Shown here: positions 1 through 54,663 of the stretch, piece by piece | Layout: every line of letters starts with the position of its first letter | Numbering within the stretch: position 1 is the stretch's first letter | Assembly (NCBI GenBank): GCA_964017145.1 | Contig: OZ024845.1 | Location: 1,984,001-2,048,000, forward strand | Length of the DNA stretch: 64,000 nucleotides | Direction of reading: 5' to 3' | DNA from: Agrocybe praecox | Taxonomy: Eukaryota > Basidiomycota > Agaricomycetes > Agaricales > Agrocybaceae | Program-made: the position numbers and the translations under genes | Notes under the pieces: model-generated | The model's input: only the letters and a program-made list of their open reading frames with translations | Databases searched by the model: none | Told to the model about the DNA's origin: nothing

Positions 1-2457
1 AATCGGGTAGTACAACGCATGAAGTACTGCGGCGGCACCTTTTCAGGATTCAAATCGCTTCTATGTGCTGCAGAGATCACAGTACTCGGTCACCGATGCA
101 CTTACGAAGGACGACTCCCAGACCTCAAGCGTGTTGCAGTTATCGTGAATTGGGGTCCCTGTAAGACACTTTCTGACGTTCGATCATTCCTAGGTACCAT
201 CGGAGTATGTCGACTATTCATCAAGAACTTCGCTCATCGTGCACACCACCTCACCAAGCTCACCAAAAAGTCAATACCTTTCGAATTCGGACCCGACCAA
301 ATCGCAGCACAAGAAGACCTCAAACAAGCACTACTCACATCACCAGCACTTCGACCTCTCGACTACGACTCCGAAGCTCCAGTAATACTCTCGGTCGACA
401 CTTCATACATAGCGGTTGGATTCATTCTCAGTCAATGCGACTCCGACAACCCCAGACTTCGATATCACTCTCGATTCGGCTCGATCACACTCAACGAACG
501 CGAAGCCAGATTCTCACAACCCAAACTCGAACTCTACGGCCTCTTTCGATCGTTCCGAAGCCTCAAGCTATATCTCATCGGCCTTCGAAACCTCATCGTC
601 GAGGTTGACGCAAAATACATCAAGGGCATGCTCTCAAATCCTGACATCGCACCATCCGCAAGCATCAACCGATGGATCGTAGCTATACTAACCTTTCATT
701 TTACTCTCGTACATGTTCCAGGTGTCTTTCACGGTCCAGACGGCCTCTCTCGACGCACCCCGCAACCAGGCGACGAACCTGAAGAGGACGACGACTTCGA
801 CGATTGGATCGACAACCTTCATGGATTCATGCACATGATCAATCCGACAACTCCAGCCCGCATCGCTCAACCACCGCTTCTCATCTTCATCAACGACTCA
901 ATAACTTCGACATCGACTCCAGCAACTTCAGCACCACCAAATACAACTCCCGAAAGCATACTCGACCCCACAGAACACACTCCCAACACCACGAACGATA
1001 CCGAAACACCCCCAATCGACACAACATCACCATCGTACAGCATTATACCTCGATCTGAACATGCAATCAAGGCCGACACTCGACTCGATCACGTACAGCA
1101 ATGGCACAACACTCTCGAAAGACCCGAACACATGCCCGACTCCGAATACAACACCTTCGTTCGATATTGCACGGAATTCTTTATTAACTCGAACCGACTC
1201 TGGCGAAAAGACCCTCAAGGCAAACACAAGATAGTCATACCTCAAGAACGGAGACTCTTCATCATATCCTCGGCTCACAACGACGTAGGACATCACGGCT
1301 TCTATGCAACATCAGCACTCATTTCCGAACGATATTGGTGGCCTCATATGAGCTTCGACATCGGATGGTACATCCGTACCTGTCATATCTGCCAACTCCG
1401 ACGCACACAGAACGTGTTAATACCGCCAACCGTCGCCATGCCCGCACCCATCTTCTCAAAGGTCTATCTCGACACCATGCACCTACCCGTCTCAGGAGGA
1501 TTCAAGTACATCACCCAGGCTCGATGCTCACTCATTCATTACCCCGAATACGCAGCACTTCGACGTGAGACCAACCGAACGATCGGCGAATTCATCTTCA
1601 AGGATCTAATCTGTCGATATGGACTCCTTCTCGAAATCGTCACAGACAACGGACCACCGATCATCAAGGCATGCGAATATCTCACCAAGAAGTACGGCAT
1701 CAAGCACATTCGAATCTCCGGATATAACTCTCGAGCAAACGGTATCATCGAACGATCGCACTTCGACATTCGGCAAGCACTCTTCAAGGCAGCTGATGGA
1801 GACGAGTCAAAATGGCACCAAGTCGTAGCCTACATGTTCTGGGCCGACCGTGTCACTGTTCGACGACGCATGGGATGCTCACCATACTTTGGACTCACAG
1901 GAACGCACCCACTACTCCCATTCGACATCACCGAAGCCAACTACCTGCTACCACCACCAGATCAAGTGCTCTCGACGACAGACCTCATCGCTCGACGCGC
2001 CATCGCACTCCAGAAACGACGAGAAGATATCGAACAGCTTCGCTCAAAGGTCTATGAAGCTCGAGTCAAGGCTGCCATACAATTCGAACTCGACCATGCA
2101 AACACCATCAAATCCTACAACTTCAAACTCGGCGACCTCGTTCTCATTCGGAACACAGCAATCGAAAAGTCCCTCAACAGGAAGATGCGCCCTCGTTACC
2201 TCGGACCCCTCATAGTCATATCTCGAAACCGTGGGGGCTCATACATACTCGCTGAACTCAACGGATCTCTCTTCGACCGACCCATAGCCGCCTTCCGAGT
2301 CATTCCATACTTCGCACGAACCTCTATACCCTTACCACCTCTCGACGAACTACTCGACATATCCATCAACCGACTCCGACAGCTCGAAGCTTCAACATCG
2401 ACCGACCCTGAAGAAGACGATGAAGAAATCGAAGGACCGGAACCCGAAGATGACTGA
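1..2457 (+). CDS. Ty3/gypsy Pol polyprotein, C-terminal fragment (RNase H, integrase)
   Basis: The frame is open from the first base to a TGA at 2455-2457 (at least 818 codons); the true start is upstream of the window. Visible parts: the end of reverse transcriptase/connection (VRSFLGTIGVCRLFIKNF), an RNase H-like region (ILSVDTSYIAVGFILSQ, then LELYGLFRSFRSLKLYLIG and VEVDAKYIKGML), a His2Cys2 integrase zinc finger (GHHGFYATSALISERYWWP then CHIC), and an integrase core with the three acidic residues in YLDTM, VTDNG and IIERSH. A basic C-terminal region (KMRPRYLGPLIVISR) matches the integrase tail seen in fungal gypsy elements; no clear chromodomain was seen. The tail is rich in Asp/Glu. No internal stops, so it may still be functional. 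Confidence 0.9.
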   Translation, partial: NRVVQRMKYCGGTFSGFKSLLCAAEITVLGHRCTYEGRLPDLKRVAVIVNWGPCKTLSDVRSFLGTIGVCRLFIKNFAHRAHHLTKLTKKSIPFEFGPDQIAAQEDLKQALLTSPALRPLDYDSEAPVILSVDTSYIAVGFILSQCDSDNPRLRYHSRFGSITLNEREARFSQPKLELYGLFRSFRSLKLYLIGLRNLIVEVDAKYIKGMLSNPDIAPSASINRWIVAILTFHFTLVHVPGVFHGPDGLSRRTPQPGDEPEEDDDFDDWIDNLHGFMHMINPTTPARIAQPPLLIFINDSITSTSTPATSAPPNTTPESILDPTEHTPNTTNDTETPPIDTTSPSYSIIPRSEHAIKADTRLDHVQQWHNTLERPEHMPDSEYNTFVRYCTEFFINSNRLWRKDPQGKHKIVIPQERRLFIISSAHNDVGHHGFYATSALISERYWWPHMSFDIGWYIRTCHICQLRRTQNVLIPPTVAMPAPIFSKVYLDTMHLPVSGGFKYITQARCSLIHYPEYAALRRETNRTIGEFIFKDLICRYGLLLEIVTDNGPPIIKACEYLTKKYGIKHIRISGYNSRANGIIERSHFDIRQALFKAADGDESKWHQVVAYMFWADRVTVRRRMGCSPYFGLTGTHPLLPFDITEANYLLPPPDQVLSTTDLIARRAIALQKRREDIEQLRSKVYEARVKAAIQFELDHANTIKSYNFKLGDLVLIRNTAIEKSLNRKMRPRYLGPLIVISRNRGGSYILAELNGSLFDRPIAAFRVIPYFARTSIPLPPLDELLDISINRLRQLEASTSTDPEEDDEEIEGPEPEDD

Positions 2458-40755: not shown

Positions 40756-41295
40756 CTACAAGTTGAAGTTGATCGGGAAGCATCCAAGTGCAACAGCACC
40801 CCCTGTAGCATCATATGATAGCCATTGAGTACATAGAGAGCGTGAAGAGAGGCATTCAAAATTCACCAAAAGTATTGTTGGAGCAACAAACGGCCTGTGC
40901 GGGGCTACAAAGTATCGATGTAGTTGTCAGCAAGTGACTTGAAGGCAGTGATGTTACCGGAGAAATAACTCACCAGGTGTTTCCGGAAACTCCACCTCCA
41001 CTGGCGGGGCTGGGGCTGCAGGCTACACCAATTAAGCCCGGAGTGAAGGTACCGACACGAATGCCTAGTAGGCCAAGGAGGCTAGAAACGCTCGCGTTAC
41101 TGGCGGCCAAGACAGCGTTACCTGTAAGCAAAAATATTATTGAGTTATCTGCTCCGCTTGTACAATAGAGCGAGAGTACTAACATCATAGGAGTTCCCCG
41201 GTGGCGCATGGGGGATCGTCGTTCCTGCGAACAGGAGCAACTGTGGCAATAACAAGGGTAGCGAAGGCGAGAGCAGAGATGAGATTGAATTGCAT
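40756..41295 (-). pseudogene. Class I hydrophobin H1, TGA at the second cysteine codon
   Basis: Exons 41184-41295, 40974-41121, 40867-40904 and 40756-40802. It has the signal peptide MQFNLISALAFATLVIATVA and first Cys (PPCATGELL), but the codon for the first Cys of the CC doublet, TGC in the four paralogues, is TGA (41187-41185). Downstream exons remain fully in phase with intact splice sites and Cys codons (GVACSPSPASG, AVCCSNNTF, ALGCFPINFNL). The break is therefore a single nonsense change in an otherwise well-kept gene: a recent pseudogene, a readthrough case or a sequence error. H1 is also the most diverged member of the array. Confidence 0.72.
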
Positions 41296-41373
41296 GTTGA
41301 ATGAGAAGGCTTGTGGTATTTGAACTTGAGGGCCAAATTGAAACTTATAAGTTCCAAGTCTCCAGGATATGGC

Positions 41374-41553
41374 GTGATGTGCGCGAAAATAAAAGTTGCG
41401 CAATTTACCCAAAATCGCGCAAGTTTGAAATTTAATCCTCACATCTTTTATGATTTAAGTTAGGTGATGTGCGCCGCCGGCTGATATTTAAGTGCAGCGC
41501 ACACTTTTCTGCAAAAAAATCGTGCACAACTTTTGAGGTGTGTGCGCATCACA
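41374..41553 (-). repeat. 180-bp element with GTGATG(T)GCGCAC inverted ends, upstream of H1
   Basis: Ends are near-inverted repeats (GTGATGTGCGCG at one side, GTGTGCGCATCAC at the other). A copy in opposite orientation is at 45763-45943. Homology between the two loci runs a little past the inverted ends (CTTATAAGTTTCAATTTGG), so it may be part of an H1-type promoter rather than a mobile unit. Confidence 0.6.
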
Positions 41554-41769
41554 TCGCACGCAATTCTGTGTAAGTACTTAGTATGCCGACATGCCGGCAC
41601 TTGACTTCTGTGATCCATGATGCGGCACATCCTGAGTGTCTCGGCATGTCATTGCAACCGTGGTTTCTACCTCTCAGAGATGACAATGTTCTATTAGATA
41701 ACTGGTAATACATATGTATGCTTTCCCTTTTTATTTTTGAAAGATATTTTTTCATATTCAGCATTAACA

Positions 41770-41990
41770 TTGTCAGCACCATGTTGAATGGTGTAGAGAG
41801 GCTCGTTTGTGGATTTAGAGATTGGTATTCTGGATGGGATCGAAATATACCGAAATTACTTGAACAAATTCAAAGCTTCGAAGGCACATAAGATACAATC
41901 TTTCACTTTGGATAGAGGCTCAGAGTATCATGTTTATATGGTAGAATATTCTGGGGAGATTATTGAATCGTGACCTGTGTGACCGTGTAC
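41770..41990 (-). repeat. Hydrophobin 3'-flank repeat, copy 2
   Basis: Downstream of H2. Shares ACTTGAACAAATTCAAAGCT and the following ~80 bp with the copy below H4 (46195 onward), and the CACCATGTTGAATGGTG segment with both other copies. Confidence 0.8.
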
Positions 41991-42036
41991 AGTACGTATA
42001 TACATATACTATATAGTACGAATTGTAAATCTCTTC

Positions 42037-42590
42037 CTACAAGTTGAGGTTGACTGGGGTGCATCCAAGTGCAACGACACCATCTATAGCACATTGAGCA
42101 CATGAAGAGAGATAGCGAGAGCAGAAGAAGATTAAAACTCACTAAAGGTATTGTTGCTGCAGCAAACGGGCTGTGCAGAGCTACAAAATATCGATGTAGT
42201 TATCAGCAAGCGATTCGACCGATGCAGCGATGTTGCCGGAGAAATAAACTCACCAAGAGTTTCCTGAAATTCCAATGGCAGAGATGGGGCTGCAGGTCAG
42301 ACCAACCAAGCCGGTGACGCTACCAATAGGGATGCCCAAGGCAGTGAGGATACCAAGAAGGGCAAGGTTCGAGCTGCTGGCCGTCTGTGAGCTGTTACCT
42401 GTAGGGGAAAATATTATTGAGTTATCTACCCCGCTTGTACAATAGAGCAAGGGTACTAACAGCATTGGAGGTCGCCGGTGTTACATTGGCTAGCAGGGGT
42501 GGTAGGGGGGAAGCTGGTCCTGCGAACAGGAGCAACTGTGGCAGCAGCAAGGGTAGCGAAGGCGAGAGCAGAGATGAGAGTGAATTGCAT
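42037..42590 (-). CDS. Class I hydrophobin H2
   Basis: Exons 42461-42590, 42254-42398, 42143-42180 and 42037-42083 (360 nt, 119 aa). Signal peptide MQFTLISALAFATLAAATVA is followed by PVRR. Eight cysteines in the class I pattern: CNTGDLQCC, VGLTC, NSC, AQPVCC and ALGCTPVNLNL. Two Cys codons (third and fifth) are split by introns. Hydrophobins are secreted, self-assemble at air-water interfaces and coat aerial hyphae and fruit bodies. A TATA-like TATAAAA (minus strand, 42669-42675) lies about 80 bp upstream of the ATG. It is head-to-head with H3 across a 1.0-kb spacer. Confidence 0.93.
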
Positions 42591-43602
42591 ATTGAATTAG
42601 AAGGCTTGTGGTATTTGAACTTTGGGTAGTTGTTCGAATGAATGATAGAATTAGGAGGGACTCCTACCTTTTATACCTTTATCGATAACAATGTAGAGCG
42701 TCATGATTTATAAACGAACAACGTTTAGAGAGACAGAGGGTCATCGGCGTCACCATTTTCATTTGACTCTTCTGAATTTCCGTGATGAAGGATGTGCGGA
42801 AGTGCTATATCGTAGTGGAGTACAAGTCAAAGCGGTGTGTTGAAAAAGGCGAGAAATATCTTTTTTTAGCGACACACAGCCTAACGGACATGGAACAAAT
42901 TGATTGAATACCAAAATTTCTCACCATTGTTTGTGTAGGCCTCTCTACGTCGTGGAGTATCAGTCAAACCGGAGCCTTAGAAGAGATGACGGACATGTAA
43001 AGAAAACGAATGAATACATGTATGTGGCAGCATCTGTGCTGTCCTCTCTAAACCCTTGTAATAGAAGCTTCGAATCATCGTGGAGTATAAGTCAAAGGGG
43101 AGACGTGAAAAAGATGAACAATGTTCGCCGATCTCTATTTTTGTCGGCCCACAGTCTAACTTACTTGGTAAGAAAAGGATGTATACATCTGAAAAAGGAA
43201 AATACGCGCCCGCTTGAGCATGCAGATATCAATGAATTCAAAGTGCCCAAGACGCAACACACAGAATAAATAGGGCTGATGCATCAAGAAACGTCCGTCG
43301 AAGAGAATGCAATCACACAGACCATATTCTCTCAGACCGCGGACATCTTCATCAACCGGTTCAAACATAAGCTTAACTCTCTCATCTCCGGACATGATCG
43401 TCATCAGGTGAAGGGGCCTAAACGCTAAACGTAAATGCCTTGACAAGTAAGTAGATATTTATAGAATTGAGCAGAGCATGACATCATCATGCAGTTAAAT
43501 AAAATAAAATACGGACATGTATAAAAACTTTGAGGTTTCTACTGATATTATTCATTCGAACAACTAACCATAGTTCAAATACCACAAGCTTTCTTACTCG
43601 AC
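42591..43602. promoter_or_regulatory. Bidirectional hydrophobin promoter spacer S1
   Basis: Divergent promoter of H2 (minus) and H3 (plus), with a TATA-like box about 80 bp from each ATG (42669-42675 and 43520-43527). It is the reverse complement, with scattered changes, of the spacer 46933-47963. Inside are three imperfect direct repeats of GTGGAGTACAAGTCAAAGCGG at 42815, 42952 and 43080. A 121-codon open frame (42904-43269, plus) is kept open in both spacers; whether it is translated is unclear. Confidence 0.75.
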
Positions 43603-44149
43603 ATGCAATTCACTCTCATCTCTGCTCTCGCCTTCGCTACCCTTGCTGCTGCCACAGTTGCTCCTGTTCGCAGGACCAGCTCCCCCCCTACCACCCCTGC
43701 TAGCCAATGTAACACCGGCGACCTCCAATGCTGTTAGTACCCGCAATCTACTGTACAATCGGAGTAGATAACTCAATAATATTCTTCCCTTCAGGTAACA
43801 GCGCACAGACCGCCAGCAGCTCGAACATTGCCCTACTTGATCTCCTCACCACCTTGGGCATCCCTATTGGTAGCGTCACCGGCTTGGTTGGTGTGACCTG
43901 CAGCCCCCTCTCTGTCATTGGAGTTGGAGGAAACTCTTGGTATGTACTCAGTGGGAATGGCTACTCTTTTCATTTTACTAATTTTCGCGGCCTTGAATTT
44001 ACAGCTCTGCACAGCCCGTATGCTGCTCCAACAACACCTTCAGTAAGTACTTCTCTCTTTCCGTTCGATTTATTCATTCTCATGTATCTTGCCGCATTGC
44101 AGATGGAGTCGTTGCCCTCGGATGTACCCCAGTTAATATCAATGCTTAG
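43603..44149 (+). CDS. Class I hydrophobin H3
   Basis: Exons 43603-43732, 43795-43939, 44005-44042 and 44103-44149 (360 nt, 119 aa). Same signal peptide as H2. The mature part has CNTGDLQCC, NSAQTASSSN, VGVTCSPLSVIGVGGNSC, AQPVCC and ALGCTPVNINA. The 5' half (NSAQTASS and intron 1) matches H4; the 3' half (SPLSVIGVGG, intron 2 and 3' flank) matches H5. This chimeric pattern is part of the inversion described in the findings. Confidence 0.93.
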
Positions 44150-45762
44150 TAGTGGACTTACAATAATTACATTTCCATAGTCTCTGAGTACTGCACGATC
44201 AAATTAATTATACTCAAGAATTGACTGGTAATAAAGTCACTCTACACATTCATTGTCCCGTTGCACGCCGAAGAACTAGTGTCCGAGAATTTTTACACGG
44301 AGAACTTTTATGAATAAAATGAGCTCAGAGAGATCAAATCTTCAGTCTTTATCTTGGAAATTCACCTGAGCATTCTGATTCATGATCGATTCCGTCCCCG
44401 TTATGACCGAAGGCTTATAGACTAGACATATAAGAAAGCACATTAAACTCTGAGAGGCGATAGAATTAAATCATACAAAATAGGAACAAAATTCTGGACG
44501 TGTCGATAGCTTTACAAAGTGGGGCAGTGATGGTATTACGCGGCGCATCGATGTATCTGTCAATATAGAGATCTAGAAAAAACACAGCGCAACAGCATAC
44601 TCACTGTTAATATGTACAGTTTTGCCTATGGTAGCTGCACAATCATCCTAAAATATTATGAAAAGATAAGGCAACAACACGAAATGCAGAGCATCACATC
44701 GCGGTTCACCAATTGGGCGTTATGGGGTCCTGAACATATAATAATATGTATACCAAGGTGGAAGCAGTGGCCAGGAGGCCCCGAGTTACAACATATCCAA
44801 TGATCCTTTCCACAATGCTAATTGTGCTGCATATAATTCAGCACTGACTCGCAATTTTGGAAAGGGTGAGCAGAGAAATATACATACGACCTGACATTGC
44901 TCTCTGATCGGGCGGCATGAAACGCACAGTCAGAACTACAGTCATTGTAGGAAGAGAGCACACGATAGGAAGATGGTGACGACTAGTGCACTGCTGGTGT
45001 TGGTCGGTCGACTATTGGAGGCTCACGATTTCTTTGAGCTGGGTTTATATAAACCCCTTGCTTCTCAGATATTCATTAAGCACACCGCCCGTCGCTACCT
45101 GAACGACGACAGGATGTTCGGTCTCCCTACACTTCCTACATTGATACAATCCACTTTCGGTGGAGCAGTCCAGAGCGCAGCTAGATGTCGAGGTAGGGCT
45201 CGGAAGCGCGTCGAGCAGCCTCGCAAGGTGGCAGTTGCGGTCAAAGTAAGCTGTATTCGGTTATGGACGCGTCGCTGTCATACATCATACAAATGATGTA
45301 TCTAATCTGATCTACGTGTACGGATTAGGCAATCGTCCAGAGTGCACTGCCACACCGGTCATGCCAATAACGCGCAGCGGTCTTCACATCGCTGCAACTG
45401 TTGTCAATTCTGTTCTAATCCATATATAACTTCAAACTTGGATGGCTTGGAGAATATCTGAGAAGAAATGGGTCCATATAACCCAACTCGAAGGGATCGT
45501 GAACTTTCATATTCAGCATTGATACCCAGTGACTTATATTGAGTCTTCTTAAACATATGTACATTTTTCACGGTCTGTCTAATTGTATAGAGTGAGTAAC
45601 GTATCAGATTTACGACGTATATCATATACGGCCTGTAGGCAAGTCGACGATAAATGAATTAAAATTAAATCAGAGAAATCATACGGATGAAGGCATGGCC
45701 CTCCACCTCGGCAAGGTTCGTACTTACACAGAACGGATTCAACGGAGTAGATTGCGTGCGAA
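44150..45762. other. Intergenic between hydrophobin blocks
   Basis: Begins with the H3 3' flank (TTGTCCCGTTGCACGCCGAA, shared with H5 at about 48590). The rest has no supported gene; an open frame at 44973-45296 has no recognised motif. Confidence 0.45.
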
Positions 45763-46010
45763 GTGAAATGTGCGCACACCTCAAAAGTTGTGCGCGATTT
45801 TTTCGGAGAAAAAAATGCGCGCTCGACTAATATATCAGCCAGCGCACATAAATTAACTTGAACCATAAAAGGTGTGCGAATTAAATGACAAAGTTGGGCG
45901 TTTTTGGGTATATCCCACAACTTTTTCTTTTCGCGTACATCACGCCATATTTCGGGACTTGAAATCTATAAGTTTCAATTTGGTCCTAAAGTGATGCGGT
46001 TCGGTTTAAT
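45763..46010 (+). repeat. Orphan H1-type promoter segment with 180-bp element
   Basis: 45763-45943 is an inverted copy of 41374-41553, and the homology continues to about 45995 in the direction where H1 has its start codon. No hydrophobin exon follows; instead the sequence passes into a fragment like the H2/H5 promoter (CTCCTACTTTTTATACCTTT at 46048-46067). It looks like the remains of a deleted or rearranged hydrophobin gene. Confidence 0.6.
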
Positions 46011-46119
46011 TTTTGTACAGACTGACCGCCATACATTGGGACGGGCTCCTACTTTTTATACCTTTTATCGCAAGGTAAAATATTGTGAACAAATTATCTT
46101 CCGAGCATTTCGGGGTGTA

Positions 46120-46320
46120 CTCATATATTTGTTAGCATCATGTTGCATGGTGTGGGGGGGCTCGTTTGTGCATTTAGAGATGGGATCCGAAAATGACTTG
46201 AACAAATTCAAAGCTTCGAAGGCACATAAGATACAATCTTTCACTTTGGATAGAGGCTCAGAGCACCGTGTTTATATTGTAGAATTTTAGGTGAGATTAT
46301 GGAATCGTAAACTTTGACCG
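46120..46320 (-). repeat. Hydrophobin 3'-flank repeat, copy 3
   Basis: Downstream of H4; shares long identical stretches with the copy below H2 (GATACAATCTTTCACTTTGG and neighbours). Confidence 0.8.
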
Positions 46321-46366
46321 TGTACGTATATACATATACTATATCGTACGAACTATAAATCTCTCT

Positions 46367-46932
46367 CTACAAGTTGAGGTTGACTGGGGTGCATCCAAGT
46401 GCAACGACACCATCTATAGCACAGTAGTATACACATTGAGCACATGAAGAGAGATAGCGAGAGCAGAAGACGATTAAAACTCACTAAAGGTATTGTTGCT
46501 GCAGCAAACGGGCTGTGCAGAGCTACAAAATGTCAATGTAGTTGGCAGCAAGCGATTCGACCGAGGCAGTGATATTGCCGGAGAAATAAACTCACCAGGA
46601 GTTTCCTGAAATTCCAATGGCAGAGATGGGGCTACAGGTCACACCAACCAAGGCGGTGACGCTACCTATAGGGATCCCTAGGAGGCCGAGGAGAGCAAGA
46701 AGGGAGGTGTTGTCGCTGCTGGCGGTCTGTGCGCTGTTACCTGTAGGGAAGAATATTATTGAGTTATCTGCTCCGCTTGTACAATAGAGCGAGGGTACTA
46801 ACAGCATTGAAGGTCGCCGGTGTTACATTGGCTAGCAGGGGTGGTAGGGGGGGAACTGGTCCTGCGAACAGGAGCAACTGTGGCAGCAGCAAGGGTAGCG
46901 AAGGCGAGAGCAGAGATGAGAGTGAATTGCAT
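46367..46932 (-). CDS. Class I hydrophobin H4
   Basis: Exons 46803-46932, 46596-46740, 46485-46522 and 46367-46413 (360 nt, 119 aa). It has the signal peptide, CNTGDLQCC, NSAQTASSDN, VGVTCSPISAIGISGNSC, AQPVCC and ALGCTPVNLNL. The 5' half and promoter match H3, while the 3' half and 3' flank match H2. A TATA-like box (minus) lies at 47009-47014, about 77 bp upstream of the ATG. Confidence 0.93.
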
Positions 46933-47963
46933 GTTGAGTAAGAAGTCTTGTGTTATTTGAACTTTGGTTAGTTGTTCGAATGAATAATATCAGTAGAAAC
47001 CTCAAAGCTTTTATACATGTCCGTATTTTATTTTATTTAACTGCGTGATGATGTCATGCTCTTCCCAATAGCGCCCGGAGGGGTCTATAAATATCTACTT
47101 TCTTGTCAAGGCATTTACGTTTAGGCCCCTTCACCTGATGACGATCATGTCCGGAGATGAGAGAGTTAGGCTTATGTTTAAACCAGCTGATGAAGATGTC
47201 CGCGGTCTGAGTGAATATGGTCTGTGTGATTTGCATTCTCTTCGACGGACGTTTGTTGATGCATCAGCCCCTATTTATTCTGTGTGTTGCGTCTTGGGCA
47301 CTTTGAATTCATTGGTATCTGCATGCTCAAGCGGGCGCGTATTTTCCTTTTTCAGATGTATACATCCTTTTCTTGCCAAGTAAGTTGGGCCGTGGACCGA
47401 AAAAAATAGAGATCGGCGAACATTGTTCATCTTTTTCACGGCTCCGCTTTGACTTGTACTCCACGATGATTCGAAGCTTCTATTGCAAGGGTTTAGAGAG
47501 GACAACACAGATGCTTCCACATACATATATTCATTCTTTTTCTTTACATGTCCGTCATCTTTTCTAAGGCTCCGTTTTGACTTATACTCCACGACGTAGA
47601 GAGGCCTACACAAACAATGGTGAGAAATTTTGATATTCAATCATTTTGTTCCATGTCCGTTATGCTGTGTGTCGCTAAAAATAGATATTTCTCACCTTTT
47701 TCAACATTCCGCTTTGACTTGTACTCCACTATGATATACCACTGCCGCACATCCTTCATCACCGACTCAATTCAAATTCAGAAGGGTCAAGCAAAGATGG
47801 TGACGCCGATGACCCTCTGTCTCTTTAAATGTTGTTCGTTTATGAATCATGACGCTCTACCTTGCGATCGATAAAGGTATAAAAGGTAGGAGTCCCTCCT
47901 AATTCTATCTTTCATTCGAACAACTACCCAAAGTTCAAATACCACAAGCCTTTCTTACTCAAC
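46933..47963. promoter_or_regulatory. Bidirectional hydrophobin promoter spacer S2 (inverted copy of S1)
   Basis: Divergent promoter of H4 (minus) and H5 (plus). Read on the minus strand it matches S1 (42591-43602) end to end: the side next to H4 corresponds to the side next to H3, and the side next to H5 to the side next to H2. The 121-codon frame lies on the minus strand here (47275-47640), with about 15 amino-acid differences and no stop. Confidence 0.75.
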
Positions 47964-48506
47964 ATGCAATTCACTCTCATCTCTGCTCTCGCCTTCGCTA
48001 CCCTTGCTGCTGCCACAGTTGCTCCTGTTCGCAGGAACGACGCCCCCCCTACCACCCCTGCTAGCCAATGTAACACCGGGGACCTCCAATGCTGTTAGTA
48101 CCCTCGTTCTATTGTACAAGCGGAGTAGATAACTCAATAATAATTTTCCCTATAGGCAACAGCTCAGGGACCGCCAGCAGCTCGAGCATTGCCCTTCTTC
48201 TCACCGGCTTGGGCATTCCTATTGGTAGCGTCACCGGCTTGGTTGGTGTGACCTGCAGCCCCCTCTCTGTCATTGGAGTTGGAGGAAACTCTTGGTATGT
48301 ACTCAGTAGTAGAAATGGCTACTCTTTTCATTTACTAACTTTCGCGGCCTTGAATTTACAGCTCTGCACAGCCCGTATGCTGCTCCAACAACTCCTTCAG
48401 TGAGTACTTCTCTCTTTCCGTTCGTTTTATTCATTCTGATATATCTTGCCGCATTGCAGATGGAGTCGTTGCCATCGGATGTACCCCAGTTAACGTCAAC
48501 TTGTAG
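47964..48506 (+). CDS. Class I hydrophobin H5
   Basis: Exons 47964-48093, 48156-48294, 48362-48399 and 48460-48506 (354 nt, 117 aa). Same signal peptide and eight-Cys pattern (CNTGDLQCC, VGVTCSPLSVIGVGGNSC, AQPVCC, AIGCTPVNVNL). It starts with VRRNDAPPTTPAS and NSSGTASSS, and has a loop two residues shorter than its paralogues. TATAAAA at 47878-47884 is about 80 bp upstream. The promoter matches H2; the 3' half matches H3. Confidence 0.93.
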
Positions 48507-49245
48507 TAGTGGACTTATTATAATAATTACATCTTCGTAGTCTGCACGTACACGATCATAGTTGTGATTAACTATACTCAAGAAATTCATTGTCCCGTTG
48601 CACGCCGAAGAACTAGTGTCCGAAAAATTTTACACTGAGAACTTTCAAGAAATTCCATTTCTGAGATTATGCACCGCCGAACAGTCTCCATCATTGTCCC
48701 TTGGGACTCTTTCTAACGGGTCATAATAGCAGGACATTACAGGGGGGCTGCTAGCAGTGGAATGAAATGAACCTCTAAGCCCTTAAATTTAACTCGGATT
48801 TTACATGGCAAAAAGGCTCTGTTTCGGGACCGAGTGACGTAGTGAATGAAATGAATGTGCCTGTGTGTATTCATCGTTCGCTTCGTTGAAGTCGCCCCAC
48901 TAAAAGGCTAAACATTCGTTCCCTGTCATGACGTAGCGAATGTGCACATACGGTTCTTTTTGGCACACCAAATACTGGCCCGATTGAATCTTTAGGATGC
49001 GCTTTGGGTATAGAGCTGCCCAAGAGCTGCCAGCTAAGAGCTTGTTGAACGAAAAGCAAAGGACGGAAGCAACCCGATATGGAAAGCTCGGTGACCTGGG
49101 GGCAGCATCACGTGAAAGATAGATGATCGCGTTCGTTTCCTCGCGGTTCGAATTGCATCGTCGCTCTTATCTCATCTGCTAAAAGGTTCATATCTCCCTG
49201 TCTTTATGAAATACCCACTGATCCTCTTCTCTAGGGATCGCCTCG
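48507..49245. other. Intergenic (H5 3' flank, LIM gene promoter)
   Basis: The H5 3' flank is shared with H3 to about 48650. The rest is upstream sequence of the LIM gene. No gene supported. Confidence 0.5.
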
Positions 49246-52200
49246 ATGGCGCACAATTCTGGATACTATCAACAGCCTCAGGGACAACAGCAGCAGCAGC
49301 AGTATCCCCCTGTATTCCAGCAGCCACAAAATATATATCAGCAGCTCGGGAAACCACAGCCGCAGCCTCATCTTCAAAGACAACCAACATATACCGTCCA
49401 GCAGCCACAACAGCAGCAGATCCAGTCTCAAGGATTCCAGTATACCCAGCCACAGTATGCTGCTCAGGGAATTCCACAACCAACCCAGACGCCATATCCT
49501 CCCAGCCAGACTCCGTATGCTCCCCCTCAACCACAATATCAGCCCTCCCCAACTCCTTATCAGGCTCAATTTACACAGCACACTCCAACGTATGCTTTAT
49601 CTCAACCAGTCTATGCTCCTCCTGCTCAGGTCCAATATTCCCAGCAGCAACAACAACCCGCTGTTCAATACCCTGTACAGCAGCAGCAACAACAACCCGT
49701 GTATTCCCCACAGACGATCCAGAATCCTACATATTCTAATCAAATACCCAACCTGCCGACCTCATCTTTCCCTAACCAGGTGACATCGCTGCCTACAAGT
49801 ACACCCCCTTCCTGGAGAGTTGCTTCAACAAAACCTCCTCCTATCTCACCCTCTGCAGCCATTGCTCAGCAGAAGCTCATTCAAAGACGGTCAATCACTG
49901 TTCCACCCGTACAGCAACCCGTACAGCAGCAGCCTGTACCACAACCATCGACTCCACAGACTACAGGCAGGCGACCCCTTCCTCAACCCGCTGGAGGAGT
50001 AAACACCGCACCGCCCGCTTTGCCTCCTCCAAATGCACCAAAACGTATTCCAGTTCTCTCTCCATCAAGCCCTTCCAAACCGTTTCCCGTACAGGTTCAA
50101 CCAATCCAGACGAACTTGCCACCTTCGTCAAAAACCCCTTCACCGACGCGTCGGCCGCTTCCTACGCCAACAGAAAGCAATGATAATAACAACAAGCGTG
50201 CTACTGTCGATTTGGGTAGATTGCCTCATCAAACGAATGGATCGGCATTTTCAGCTACGGGCTCGAATTTCTCTACGCCTTCATCATCATCTAGCCCGAC
50301 AAAGTCCGTCTTTCCTTCTATAGCGGATAGGAAAGCAGGACTTGGGGTTGGACTCTCCAAAACGTCTAGTTATGCGGTTAGTCTTACCTCTCCGGCAGAG
50401 GAGACGGACATGCCCAAGAGGCGAGCGAGTCCCCCGAAATTCCAATCGCAACCAAGCTCGCAATCTAACAGTCCTCTCAAAGAAACTCCTCCGTCAACTT
50501 CGTGGAATAGATCGGATAACAATGGTGGTGGTGGTGATTTCTACAATAACAACGCCCCTACTACCCAACCCCAACCACAATCAGCAAAATCCACTTCTTC
50601 TGGATTCCCACACCCCCAAAACCCAAACGTATCCGCACCCCCGATGATGTCGAAGACCTCGACGAGTTCTGCGTCCGAGAGCTTCGTGTCTGCAGCTAGC
50701 ACCACGAATAACAGCAGCAGCAGTAGTAGCTCAACAGCCGCGCCGCCGCCTCAGAAGTTCACCCCGATGTGGAAACGCACGATTCCTGAGATGCCAGCGC
50801 CTGTGTGGGGGTATGCAGCGGGGATGGTGGCTGAGCCTCATCCGAAGCCTAAGCCGCCGCCGCCTGTGGTTGCTGCGCCAGTGCCACCAGCTGCTGTTGC
50901 TGCTGCTGTCGTTCCTCCGCCTAGCAGCAGTAGCTCGAACAAGTGGGGTAAATTGTTGAAGAAGAAGAAATCGGCTGCCCCTATTCCTGTTGCTGCACCT
51001 GTGCAGCCCCCAGCGCCTGCGCCTGCACCTACAGGCCCCGCACCGAGCTTGGCACAGCAGTATCAGCAGTACCAGCAATCGCGCGCTGCGGCGATGGCGA
51101 ATGCGGGGTATGTGTCGGCGAGTCCGCCGAAGCCTGGTGGGTATGCGGGGTATCAGGCTCAGGCTGCTGGTGATGTTGATGGTTCTGCGGGAGGGTATTT
51201 GAACCAGGGGTATCCGAGGAGTAGTCAGGTGGTGCAGCAGCAGCTGCAACAGGCTCAGTATCGACAGGCGCAGGAGGAAGAGGAGGGGGAGACGGAGGAG
51301 AGCGAAGAGACGGAGGAGACGGAAGAAGAAGATGATGATGAGGAGGAGGAGGAGGAAGAAGAGCAAGCCCCAGTCATCGTCACTCGTTTCCACGGACGGG
51401 GTAAAGACGCTCGATCCTCTTCTCGCGGTGCACATGCACGAGAAGTACTGGAAAGCACACCAACACCTCGCAGCAGCAGCAAAGTCCTTCGACCAAAGGC
51501 GAAGACGAAGAACGACCCGTATACGTATGCGGAGACACCGTCGCCTACTAAAGTTGGCCGAGCAGGGAAGAGCAGGGAGGCCACCGCGGAAGAGCCTTAT
51601 GCGGTGGCGATACGACAATCGCCTACTAAGCTTGGTTTGAGGAGAGTTCGGAATCCGCCTTCGGAATTTGATGATGATGATGAAGATGAAGAAGAGGAGG
51701 AGGAGGATGATCGGCGACGGGCGCCTATTGTGAAGAAAAAAGTTGCGCCGCGTTCGCAGTCCCTTGGAAGGAAACACGAGAGGTCGAAGAGTGCCTTTGA
51801 GGAAAGGGAGATAGGTGGACATAGACGCGAGCCTAGCGAGCGGGAGAGAGTGAGGCCTGGATCGGCGTTTGCGAGCCAACATCAGCGGAGGCGGACGTAT
51901 GAGGAGGAGGAAGAAGAGGAAGAGGAGGAAGCGAGGTTGGCGTATGATGATGATGATGATGAGGAGGAGGAGGAGGAAGAAGAAGAGAGCGAGATGGAGT
52001 GGCAGAAGAGGACGCCGAAGAAGAAGGGTTATAGTGCAAAGGCGATTATGCCTCCGCCTGGTCCTGGGCCTGCTTCGAGTCGAAAGGTTGATGTTGAGCG
52101 AGAACGAGATGCGAGATTCGATAGACGCGGAGGACCTGGTCCTCAATATGGGATTCCTGATATGAAGTCGACGGGGAAGAGGTCCAAGTCGGCTGTGGGT

Positions 52201-54663
52201 GCTAGGAGGCGGTATGAGGAGGAGGAGGAGGAAGAAGAAGAGGAAGAGGAGGATTATAGGCAGCGAGCTGTTGTTACTCCCAAGCAGAGGAAACAGGATC
52301 GTGGTTATCGGGAACGTGGAGAGCAGGAGTGGGAGGAAGAGTATGATTCGAGGCAGCAGCAGCAACGGATTACGGGCAGAAGTGCAAAGGCAGGGACAGG
52401 GCTTCCCCAGCCTCCTGCGATGGTTCGAGAGACAGGTGCTTCTGCTTCCGCATCATCGGAGCAGGACAGTAGGAAGGTGCGCGGAGGTCCTAGACTAAAG
52501 AGCGCGCCTATTAAATTTGACGATTACGATGAAGAAGAGCACCGGCGTAAGGTCGAGCAGAATAATCGCAAAGAGGGTCTGAACGGCAGATTCTCTGCGA
52601 TGAATGTTAATGGCCACAACAACAACAGCAGCAGGAGCGAGAGCCGGGGCTCTGCGAACTCGTCGTCGTTGTCGAATGCGTGGCCTGCGGATTTACCACG
52701 TCTTCCGAGGACACCTGGGTCGATTTCGAATGACGCGCAGGATTATTTCGATATGGATATGAGGCCTCAGTCTCAGGCATCTACGAGTACAAACATGTCT
52801 TCGTCGTCGAATAATTATGGAGGCGCGCAGGTCTTGGCACACAACCAGGTGATGAGGAACTCGCGCATCGAGAACCATAAATCGAATCTTAACTTGGACG
52901 ACCCGCCGCCGCGCGGTGCTACTGTACGTACGCCATCCCCAGGTCCTTCTGGTTCTGGTTATACGGTGACGTTGCGGAGGGAGCTGCCCCAGCCGCAAGG
53001 ACGTCCACAGTCGCAGATTAATCCTGTGCCTGCTAATAAAGCGATGGAACAGTTGGCGCGACGACGGTCGTTGTATTCGGCGCCTACTGCTCAGCAGGAT
53101 ATTCCTTCTGAGAATTTGCAAAGAAGACCGCAGAGCCAGATTTATAACATGGCACATGTCCCACCGCCTCCGTCTGCGTTTGCTCAGCATATGCAACAAC
53201 ATGGAGGAGGGTCGAACACGTCCAATTTTTCTGATAAGCTTACTCAACAATTGTCCAATGTCAGGAATCAGCCGCAGACACCAGCGCCTCCGCCTACGAT
53301 TGGGATTGAATCTCCTCATCCTGTTGGAGGCAGGAGCAAGATGGCGGATATACCCAAGCTAGAGGAAGATAGCAATCATGGAAGTGACACTGAACGACGA
53401 CAGCCACCTCGTATTCAGGTCGGTCCTTCAGGTGGCTCGTCGAACGTACAGAGGATAAGACATGGACATGGACATGTCGAGGCTGCGTCACGACCTCCGT
53501 CAATTCCTGCTATCAGCGTCAATTCGCCGCCGATGGGGAATAACATACCTATGATTAACATAGGCATGGACGACTCGCCGCGTCAGCAGCAGGAGCATGA
53601 AGGACCTAAGATCCAAGTTTATGAAATTCCGGGCATAAGTGTCTCAGGACCTGGGTTCGACGATCAGGGTCCGAGTATCAATGTCTCTGGTCCTGAAGAC
53701 CATAATGGCCAGCATCAGCACCATCAGCAGCAACAACAACAACAGCGCCACCACCAACAGAGACCTCCATCTCAAGGACAGAATTACGGCAGACAATCAC
53801 GCGTTGGAGGAGGTCTTATCTGTGGTGGGTGTCATGGATCGATCTCTGGCCGGATTGTTAGTGCGATGGGCATGAGATGGCATCCCGCGTGCTTCAAGTG
53901 TACCGTGTGCAATGAGTTATTGGAACATGTCAGCTCGTATGAGCATGAAGGTCGTCCGTATTGCCATCTTGACTACCACGAGGTAAGCGACGATTTTTTC
54001 CTATTACAAACCTTCTTTTTTCTCCAGAACCTTCCCCAACTAATGTGATTTCATGTTTTTCTCGAAACGTGGTAGAACTTCGCACCGAGGTGTTATAGCT
54101 GCAAGACGGCGATCATAGAAGAGCAATTTATTAGCTTGGATGATCCAGCTCTGGGAAAGAGAGCTTATCACACACAACATTTCTTTTGCGCTGAATGTGG
54201 CGATCCGTTCCTTTCGCCATCTGGTGCCCTTCCCACAGATTCCAAAGGTATGTTTCTTTTTTCGCCAGGTATTACTATCCCCTTACTCAATAATCGCCCA
54301 TCACAGGAGAACTTGCCTTGAGCGGTGATGGTGAATTTGAAGGATTCACAGTATACAAAGGTTACCCGTATTGTGAAGCATGTCACGTCCGCCTGAGACT
54401 GCCAAAATGCAAGCGATGCAAGAGGTCCATCCGCGACAATGATGAAGCGGTGGAGGCCTTGGGAGGGAAGTGGTGTTGGAGTTGTTTCGTGTGTGCGGTC
54501 AGTCCTTATTCGTGAATAACTTTTCTTAAAAGTTAAATCTGATATATTTTCGCGTGCAATATAGAGCTGCGAAAAACCGTTTGATGACCCATCCTTCTTT
54601 CAACGTGGGGATCAGCCATATTGTGAACATTGCTTCAGCGTCATACTGCGGAACGAGATCTGA
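49246..54663 (+). CDS. Large LIM-domain scaffold protein (paxillin/Pxl1-like)
   Basis: Exons 49246-53982, 54076-54247, 54307-54497 and 54565-54663 (5199 nt, 1732 aa). The first ~1500 residues are disordered: Gln/Pro-rich at the start (QQPQGQQQQQQYPPVFQQPQ), Ser/Pro-rich, then long Glu/Asp runs alternating with basic stretches. Three LIM zinc-binding domains close the protein: CGGCHG...WHPACFKCTVC...YCHLDYH at ~1525, CYSCKT...HFFCAECGDPF...YCEACH, and CKRCKRS...CWSCFVCASCEKPF...YCEHCF near the C-terminus. All zinc ligands appear present. C-terminal LIM repeats behind a long disordered head fit fungal paxillin-like proteins (Pxl1), which act at the actin ring and polarity sites; the match is by architecture. 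Acceptors and donors are standard. Confidence 0.85.

What the first reader, a model, noticed from the sequence alone, without database searches (positions are those of the whole stretch)
42037..48506. Flipped bidirectional promoter between two head-to-head hydrophobin pairs
Seen: block I (H2 minus, spacer S1, H3 plus) and block II (H4 minus, S2, H5 plus) agree outward from mid exon 2: H2 and H4 share SPISAIGISG, similar 3' introns and 3' flank; H3 and H5 share SPLSVIGVGG and theirs. Inward, pairing is crossed: the H2 promoter matches H5, the H3 promoter matches H4 (with NSAQTASS and ATAATATTCTTCCCT in intron 1), and S2 is the reverse complement of S1. Inference: inverted paralogous exons acted as recombination sites and flipped the ~1-kb promoter cassette with the first exons, so the two secreted coat proteins exchanged promoters. 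If it still happens it would be a eukaryotic promoter-inversion switch; if old, it is a record of one event.
Basis: partly seen in the sequence, partly recalled or inferred. Interest (0 to 1): 0.85.

Follow-up and report, generated by a model that had tools for sequence, protein, structure and literature searches.

The report
Flipped promoter between mushroom hydrophobin genes
In a mushroom genome, two neighbouring copies of a pair of surface-coat protein genes share the same two-sided promoter in opposite orientations, so an old DNA flip seems to have made the two coat proteins trade promoters; it looks like one past event, not a working switch.

Summary
Blocks I (H2/H3) and II (H4/H5) are duplicated head-to-head hydrophobin pairs. 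Their 3' halves and flanks pair straight (H2-H4 'X', H3-H5 'Y'). Their unrelated promoters 'a' and 'b' pair crosswise (H2/H5 = a, H3/H4 = b), and the ~1-kb spacers match end to end only when one is reversed (94%). The exchange zone lies between -36 and +305 of each gene. It holds the signal-peptide stretch, identical in six paralogues at all 18 fourfold sites, so the inverted arms look homogenised. That exon 1 and intron 1 moved with the promoter is not shown.

New here is the polarity. Of five other clear X genes, four carry promoter a and one neither. In a third block about 95 kb away a Y flank lies on the b side. So block I is unflipped and block II flipped.

Best reading: one past inversion by recombination between inverted exon-1 arms, leaving all four promoter-protein combinations. 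A working switch is unlikely: the arms are short and about 91% alike. Reads and other strains were not available.

The parts
40756..41295 (-). H1, decayed X-type hydrophobin copy next to H2; TGA at codon 37; its promoter is neither a nor b
   Evidence: stop codon read from the sequence
41770..42036 (-). X-type 3' flank of H2, matches 46129-46360 (26 differences in 232 sites)
42037..42590 (-). H2 (block I): promoter a + X body; exons 42461-42590, 42254-42398, 42143-42180, 42037-42083
   Evidence: PF01185
42591..43602 (+). S1, divergent promoter region of block I, order a (H2 side) to b (H3 side); taken as unflipped
43603..44149 (+). H3 (block I): promoter b + Y body; exons 43603-43732, 43795-43939, 44005-44042, 44103-44149
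44150..44943 (+). Y-type 3' flank of H3; the near part (to 44314) repeats after H5; 44239-44943 also occurs, in pieces and inverted, beside block III (C6:2119165-2120151)
45751..45992 (-). inverted copy (80%) of the H1 promoter region (41324-41564) in the left flank of block II
46129..46366 (-). X-type 3' flank of H4
46367..46932 (-). H4 (block II): promoter b + X body (recombinant); exons 46803-46932, 46596-46740, 46485-46522, 46367-46413
46627..46968 (-). left exchange zone of the inversion (-36 to +305 of H4)
46933..47963 (-). S2, divergent promoter region of block II, order b (H4 side) to a (H5 side); 94% identical to S1 when reversed
47927..48263 (+). right exchange zone of the inversion (last crossed promoter site to first straight site in H5)
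47964..48506 (+). H5 (block II): promoter a + Y body (recombinant); exons 47964-48093, 48156-48294, 48362-48399, 48460-48506
48507..48651 (+). Y-type 3' flank of H5, 22 differences in 138 sites to that of H3

Best explanation
An ancestral head-to-head pair X(-)-[a...b]-Y(+), with a ~1-kb divergent promoter region, was duplicated into blocks I and II (shown: both blocks share the X flank on the left and the Y flank on the right). The signal-peptide exons of these paralogues were kept alike by gene conversion, so each block carries two inverted homologous arms (shown: inverted arms, signal-peptide stretch identical; gene conversion as the cause is inferred). In block II one crossover between the arms turned over the 1.0-1.6 kb between them (inferred). 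The X body in H4 thereby came under promoter b and the Y body in H5 under promoter a; block I keeps a-X and b-Y (shown as arrangement; that a and b are promoters rests on position, TATA boxes and conservation, and the effect on expression is not shown). The flip is most likely a fixed or segregating past event of the flip/flop type, not a programmed switch.
For: Straight pairing of the 3' halves (delta lnL about 145 against either alternative; bootstrap H3+H5 100, H2+H4 84) and of the flanks. Crossed pairing of unrelated promoters and end-to-end reversed identity of the spacers. One ordered change of pairing: 6 crossed sites, then 90 straight. Inverted arms at the exchange zone: in block II 248 nt at 91% (I5) with an 85-bp exact run, in block I 403 nt at 91% (I3) with 79 bp. 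Arm homogenisation: 0 of 18 fourfold columns vary in codons 1-24 of H2-H7 against 18 of 31 in the rest of the gene (Fisher p 2.7e-5). Polarity: of five other clear X genes (H1, H6-H9), H6, H7, H8 and H9 have promoter a and H1 has neither; in block III the spacer runs b-to-a towards H7, and a Y 3' flank lies, rightly oriented, on the b side. S1 and S2 are separated from S3 and S4 with 100% bootstrap in an unrooted tree. Divergence between blocks is of one order in the parts (spacer 5.7%, X half 7.6%, Y half 9.7%), as for one duplication followed by a flip.
Against: The exchange zone is almost without informative sites, so crossovers are bracketed, not located. Divergence differs somewhat between parts (chi-square p 0.034; spacer vs Y 0.015, vs X 0.20), which a later transfer of the spacer could also give, though constraint fits as well (spacers S1/S2 vs S3 10-11%, X genes vs H6/H7 15-20%). 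In mid exon 2 (+205..+304) H2 resembles H3/H5 (8/99, 9/93 differences), not H4 (22/99), so extra conversion tracts blur the picture. Over about 115 sites of near Y flank the block III remnant is closer to H5 (13/114) than to H3 (26/117), which a plain I/II duplication does not predict. In block III the body next to b is gone (a 42-bp exon fragment is left) and H6 (an inverted a-X copy), a 3.4-kb stretch with inverted repeat ends and an 885-bp repeat lie between it and the Y flank. Weaker X matches elsewhere (C6:2300492, C3:415703, C6:2352644, C6:2297929 and others) were not tested for promoter type; H10 (C6:2279608), of unclear body type, has weak promoter-a similarity (53 and 45 against a shuffle best of 26).
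Confidence: 0.7

Rival explanations
1. Gene conversion in inverted register: repair of block II copied the spacer from block I through the exon-1 homology, in the opposite orientation, without a crossover.
For: The same arms would serve. The spacer differs less between blocks (5.7%) than the Y half (9.7%, p 0.015). Conversion-like tracts occur in these genes.
Against: Like for like, the spacer is not the youngest part: spacer I-II 0.057 against 0.10-0.11 to block III (ratio about 0.5), X gene part 0.036 against 0.15-0.20 (ratio about 0.2). A ~1-kb tract with both ends in short arms is needed.
Confidence: 0.12
2. The inversion took place in block I, and block II keeps the ancestral b-X/a-Y arrangement.
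For: The two blocks alone are symmetric. The near Y flank of block III is closer to H5's than to H3's.
Against: a-X in H6, H7, H8 and H9 and the Y flank on the b side of block III would need further independent changes.
Confidence: 0.08
3. Block II is an inverted duplicate of block I whose two gene 3' halves and flanks were each replaced later (two separate conversions).
For: 3' replacements seem to happen here: in block III a Y body looks replaced by an inverted a-X copy.
Against: Needs two independent replacements of about 0.4-0.8 kb, in both genes, with exactly reciprocal outcome; one inversion explains both.
Confidence: 0.05
4. Misassembly at the near-identical exon-1 arms.
For: Exact arm matches of 79-85 bp in inverted orientation could mislead a short-read assembler. 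No reads could be examined.
Against: No N in the window. Contig C6 is 3.8 Mb and the window lies inside it, which suggests long reads (inference). The spacers differ by 6% and the arms are short against any long read.
Confidence: 0.05
5. A working promoter-inversion switch: the cassette still flips often and both orientations coexist among nuclei or strains (not exclusive of the best explanation).
For: Inverted homogenised arms exist in both blocks; the first 134 bases of H2 and H3 differ at one site, so the arms may have interacted lately.
Against: Arms are about 250-400 nt at about 91%, against 2 kb identical in Hansenula (PMC4238957, passages) and 4.2 kb in Saccharomyces, where no flip was seen in about 53,800 mitoses and 950 meioses (PMC9731477, passages). 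The assembly shows one orientation per locus.
Confidence: 0.05

Closest known systems
Saccharomyces chromosome XIV flip/flop region (Salzberg et al. 2022, PMC9731477; abstract and passages seen)
   Same: Inverted paralogous genes kept alike by gene conversion; occasional crossover inverts what lies between; the authors see inversion as a by-product of homogenisation.
   Different: There the 4.2-kb arms hold whole genes with their promoters, so genes keep their promoters and 24 kb with 15 genes turns; here the arms are exon-1 stretches and what turns is the promoter pair itself.
Mating-type switching by inversion in Hansenula/Ogataea polymorpha (PMC4238957, passages seen; PMC5720833, start of abstract in the listing)
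   Same: Inversion between inverted repeats in a fungus changes which gene is expressed.
   Different: Induced by starvation, 19 kb, identical 2-kb repeats, works by moving genes to or from a repressed position; here no regulation or recurrence is shown.
Recurrent inversion on the mammalian X chromosome (Caceres et al., known here only as cited in PMC9731477)
   Same: Same proposed conversion-crossover mechanism.
   Different: Does not exchange promoters between paralogues, as far as I recall.
Bacterial invertible promoters (for example fimS; recalled)
   Same: A promoter segment turns between outward genes.
   Different: Site-specific recombinase and short defined sites; here two promoters trade targets, apparently by homologous exchange, and both genes keep a promoter.
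Hydrophobin family evolution (PMC3879219 and PMC2253510; passages seen)
   Same: Duplicated hydrophobin genes, in basidiomycetes partly clustered.
   Different: Trichoderma class II genes were judged free of recombination and concerted evolution; here exon 1 is homogenised and a promoter exchange is recorded.

Membership tests
Hydrophobins (PF01185), class I | Pfam hydrophobin domain and eight-cysteine pattern | tested here: met
   H2-H5 score 85.7-87.8 bits against a cut-off of 23; eight Cys in all four models; all five solved-structure sequences matched by H3 are hydrophobins
Hydrophobins (PF01185), class I | Class I rather than class II | tested here: inconclusive
   Inferred from names of some relatives and spacing; no class-specific test made
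Inversion by recombination between inverted paralogues (flip/flop type) | Inverted homologous arms flank the turned segment | tested here: met
   I3, I5, I12, I17; exchange zone -36..+305
Inversion by recombination between inverted paralogues (flip/flop type) | Arms homogenised | tested here: met
   0 of 18 vs 18 of 31 variable fourfold columns, for the first 72 bases; the rest of the arms differs more, and selection on the DNA of exon 1 is not excluded
Inversion by recombination between inverted paralogues (flip/flop type) | Both orientations exist | tested here: inconclusive
   Between paralogous blocks yes (I vs II); within one locus among strains not testable
Inversion by recombination between inverted paralogues (flip/flop type) | Recurrence of the inversion | not testable with these tools
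   No relative held for this genome
Regulated promoter-inversion switch | Reversible flipping with change of expression | not testable with these tools
   Needs reads, PCR and RNA
Regulated promoter-inversion switch | Dedicated recombinase acting on defined sites | not tested
   No search for one was made; the arms are ordinary coding exons

The most novel reading that the evidence does not exclude
Gene conversion that keeps hydrophobin signal-peptide exons alike turns head-to-head pairs into slow flip/flops: promoter cassettes invert repeatedly in populations and dikaryons, so which coat protein is made in which tissue or stage is polymorphic, and one duplication plus one flip gives all four promoter-protein combinations.
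Probability: 0.13. Interest if true: 0.85.

Novelty: new variant of a known kind. Interest (0 to 1): 0.52.

Why it matters
Promoter exchange between neighbouring paralogues by inversion is a neat route to new expression patterns: nothing is lost, both genes keep a promoter, and the unflipped copy next door keeps the old pairing. The locus is a natural experiment (a-X, b-Y, b-X, a-Y side by side) for separating what a hydrophobin's promoter does from what its protein does, and its arms can be tested for flipping by simple PCR. No title listed in nine searches of the held open-access library (one search listed 20 of 721 papers and one search listed 12 of 18) reports a hydrophobin promoter inversion; most subscription papers are not held.

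Tried and rejected
A tree for the 5' gene part (-50..+204) was meant to test whether exon 1 and intron 1 travelled with the promoter; it leans to the crossed pairing without significance, and differences over the first 134 bases are even, so that claim was dropped. The intron-1 and NSAQTA markers were set aside because H6 (promoter a) shares them. Divergence per segment was tried to tell inversion from spacer transfer; it does not decide. A short core seen in several hydrophobin promoters (CTCCRCTTTGACWT) had 13 hits against 3 in the reversed control; 7 lie upstream of hydrophobins, but 5 of these are in this family's own spacers and I had seen the other two promoters before choosing it; the remaining 6 are not near any hydrophobin listed. 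It is only a lead. Paper searches for promoter exchange by inversion gave nothing relevant: searches found no paper, one unrelated paper each. Rfam on the whole window gave no match at the gathering score. The species could not be named: the 16 best of 120 listed protein hits are 65-76% identical and come from Galerina, Agrocybe, Psilocybe and Crassisporium.
Full report
WHAT IS THERE. The window is C6:1984001-2048000 of a 59-Mb genome in 347 contigs. By its hydrophobins it is a mushroom near Galerina, Agrocybe and Psilocybe; no close match was listed (16 best of 120 listed hits, 65-76% identity). Two blocks lie about 4.3 kb apart, start to start. Block I is H2 (minus), spacer S1, H3 (plus); block II is H4 (minus), spacer S2, H5 (plus). 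All four genes give intact four-exon models of 117-119 aa with eight cysteines and match PF01185 at 86-88 bits.

STRAIGHT OUTSIDE. From mid exon 2 outward, H2 goes with H4 (type X) and H3 with H5 (type Y). A constraint test on +300..+545 in ten genes gives delta lnL about 145 against each alternative (AU p below 1e-39). The X flank left of both blocks (41770-42036 and 46129-46360, 26 differences in 232 sites) and the Y flank right of both (44149-44314 and 48507-48651, 22 in 138) agree with this. So the two blocks are direct duplicates in their outer parts.

CROSSED INSIDE. Two unrelated promoters exist. In local alignment of -300..-51, H2-H5 scores 359 and H3-H4 372; H2-H3, H2-H4, H5-H3 and H5-H4 score 20-23, under the best of 50 shuffles. 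S1 and reversed S2 align end to end with 60 differences in 1005 sites. Both promoters have TATAAAA 83-86 bases before the ATG. The spacers carry repeats of a motif whose ten exact hits in the genome all lie in spacers or promoter pieces of this family (the motif was taken from these spacers, so this says only that it is specific).

WHERE THE PAIRING CHANGES. Among H2-H5, 97 informative sites lie between -60 and +640: six crossed (-59 to +200), then 90 straight (+305 on), and one that joins H2 with H3. The robust exchange zone is -36..+305, so the inverted stretch is about 0.96 to 1.64 kb (46968-47927 to 46627-48263). Only +181 and +200 place it inside exon 2. A tree of -50..+204 leans to the crossed pairing without significance (delta lnL 1.1, AU 0.65 vs 0.35 and 0.35), and over the first 134 bases crossed pairs differ at 6 and 2 sites, straight pairs at 3 and 5. 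Thus the promoter exchange is firm, but that exon 1 and intron 1 moved too is not.

THE ARMS. Codons 1-24 are identical at every base in H2-H7. All 18 fourfold-degenerate columns are invariant there, against 18 variable of 31 in the rest of these genes (Fisher p 2.7e-5). H1 and H8 differ from this stretch at 4 and 3 of 73 bases. H6 and H7 lie about 93-102 kb from blocks I and II and differ by 15-20% from H2/H4 in the X body, so this identity is best explained by gene conversion between paralogues; selection on the DNA of exon 1 is not excluded. H2 and H3 differ at 1 of the first 134 sites. In mid exon 2 H2 looks like H3/H5 (8/99, 9/93) and not like H4 (22/99), a further probable tract. Within each block the arms are inverted: in block II 248 nt at 91% with neighbouring pieces at 82-85%, in block I 403 nt at 91%; the longest exact runs are 85 and 79 bp.

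WHICH COPY IS FLIPPED. The spacer has two more copies. In block III (C6:2124.8-2128.2 kb) it runs b-to-a towards H7 (plus), which has an X body and promoter a. H6 (minus), an inverted duplicate of the same a-X unit (1.4 kb, 84%), lies to its left. The b side ends in a 42-bp exon-1 fragment, then an 885-bp repeat that has four further near-full copies elsewhere. Further left, C6:2119165-2120192 matches, in pieces at 87-89%, the Y flank of blocks I and II and the 600 bases beyond H3's (to 44943), oriented as if a Y gene on the minus strand had stood on the b side. On C9, H8 has promoter a and an X body; the b end is lost. On C7, H9 has promoter a (proximal part) and an X body. Of five clear X genes outside H2/H4 (H1, H6, H7, H8, H9), four have promoter a and one (H1, a pseudogene) has neither. 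Weaker X matches were not tested, and H10, of unclear body type, has weak promoter-a similarity. Only H3 and H5 match the Y query over most of its length. Parsimony then gives a-X/b-Y as the old state, block I as unflipped and block II (b-X, a-Y) as flipped.

MECHANISM. One crossover between inverted exon-1 arms in block II after the duplication explains the map with one event. Inverted-register gene conversion of the spacer would give the same map. Segment divergences (spacer 5.7%, X half 7.6%, Y half 9.7%; chi-square p 0.034, spacer vs X 0.20, spacer vs Y 0.015; X gene part alone 3.6%) do not settle it. The Saccharomyces flip/flop region is the nearest precedent: homogenised inverted paralogues, with crossovers as a by-product (PMC9731477, abstract and passages). 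There the promoters lie inside the arms, so genes keep them; here the arms begin close to the start codon, so the promoters are what turns over. In Hansenula polymorpha an inversion between identical 2-kb repeats does act as a switch (PMC4238957, passages).

SWITCH OR RECORD. Arms of a few hundred bases at about 91% are poor substrates compared with the 2-4 kb repeats of both precedents (inference), and even the Saccharomyces region showed no flip in about 53,800 mitoses and 950 meioses (PMC9731477, passages). I read this as a past event with a standing, low chance of recurrence. No reads, strains or relatives were held, so polymorphism, expression and misassembly were not tested directly; the window and the block III and C9 loci hold no N.

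LOOSE ENDS. The near Y flank of block III is closer to H5 (13/114) than to H3 (26/117). The H1 promoter region (41324-41564) occurs inverted at 45751-45992 (80%), and a promoter-a core lies at 46035-46107 that also matches H8's, so the left flank of block II was rearranged too.

LITERATURE. In Trichoderma class II hydrophobins no recombination or concerted evolution was found (PMC2253510, passages). In two wood-decay basidiomycetes the genes are partly clustered (PMC3879219, passages). No title listed in nine searches of the open-access library (one search listed 20 of 721 and one search listed 12 of 18) reports hydrophobin promoter inversion or exchange; one more search (8 of 19 listed) was for the yeast precedents.

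Noticed in passing
window 40756-41295: H1 is an X-type hydrophobin with a TGA at codon 37, apparently a pseudogene, with a promoter unlike a and b.
   Followed up: partly
window 45751-46107: Left flank of block II holds an inverted copy of the H1 promoter region and a decayed promoter-a core: a second rearrangement, unexplained.
   Followed up: partly
L009 (C6:2118001-2128000), about 2120845-2124245: 3.4-kb stretch flanked by 31-bp perfect inverted repeats, lying within the inverted copy of H7's outer flank: probably a DNA transposon insertion.
   Followed up: partly
L009 C6:2125625-2126509: 885-bp repeat with four further near-full copies (86-99%) and several partial ones in the genome, between H6's promoter a and the orphan exon fragment.
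   Followed up: partly
C9:241306 (L011), H8: H8 reads PVYC where the others have PVCC, so one conserved cysteine seems lost; the script found no eight-cysteine model.
   Followed up: partly
genome, from the list by eye: Seven neighbouring hydrophobin pairs within 6 kb are head-to-head (one on C4, five on C6, one on C8), so the same flip could be looked for elsewhere.
   Followed up: no
upstream of C4:2398398 and C6:2274102 hydrophobins, and in the spacers: Core CTCCRCTTTGACWT recurs in promoters of distant hydrophobins (7 of 13 genome hits upstream of hydrophobins, 5 of them in this family's spacers; control 3), a possible shared activator site.
   Followed up: partly
window 45081-45098: 18 bases CACACCGCCCGTCGCTAC recall the 3' end of 18S rRNA (recalled, not looked up); Rfam reports no match in the window at the gathering score.
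   Followed up: partly
window 19-2457 and 49246-54048: Reverse-transcriptase RNase H and integrase zinc-binding domains (Pfam) at the left end, a retroelement; a 1600-aa ORF with a LIM domain right of block II.
   Followed up: partly
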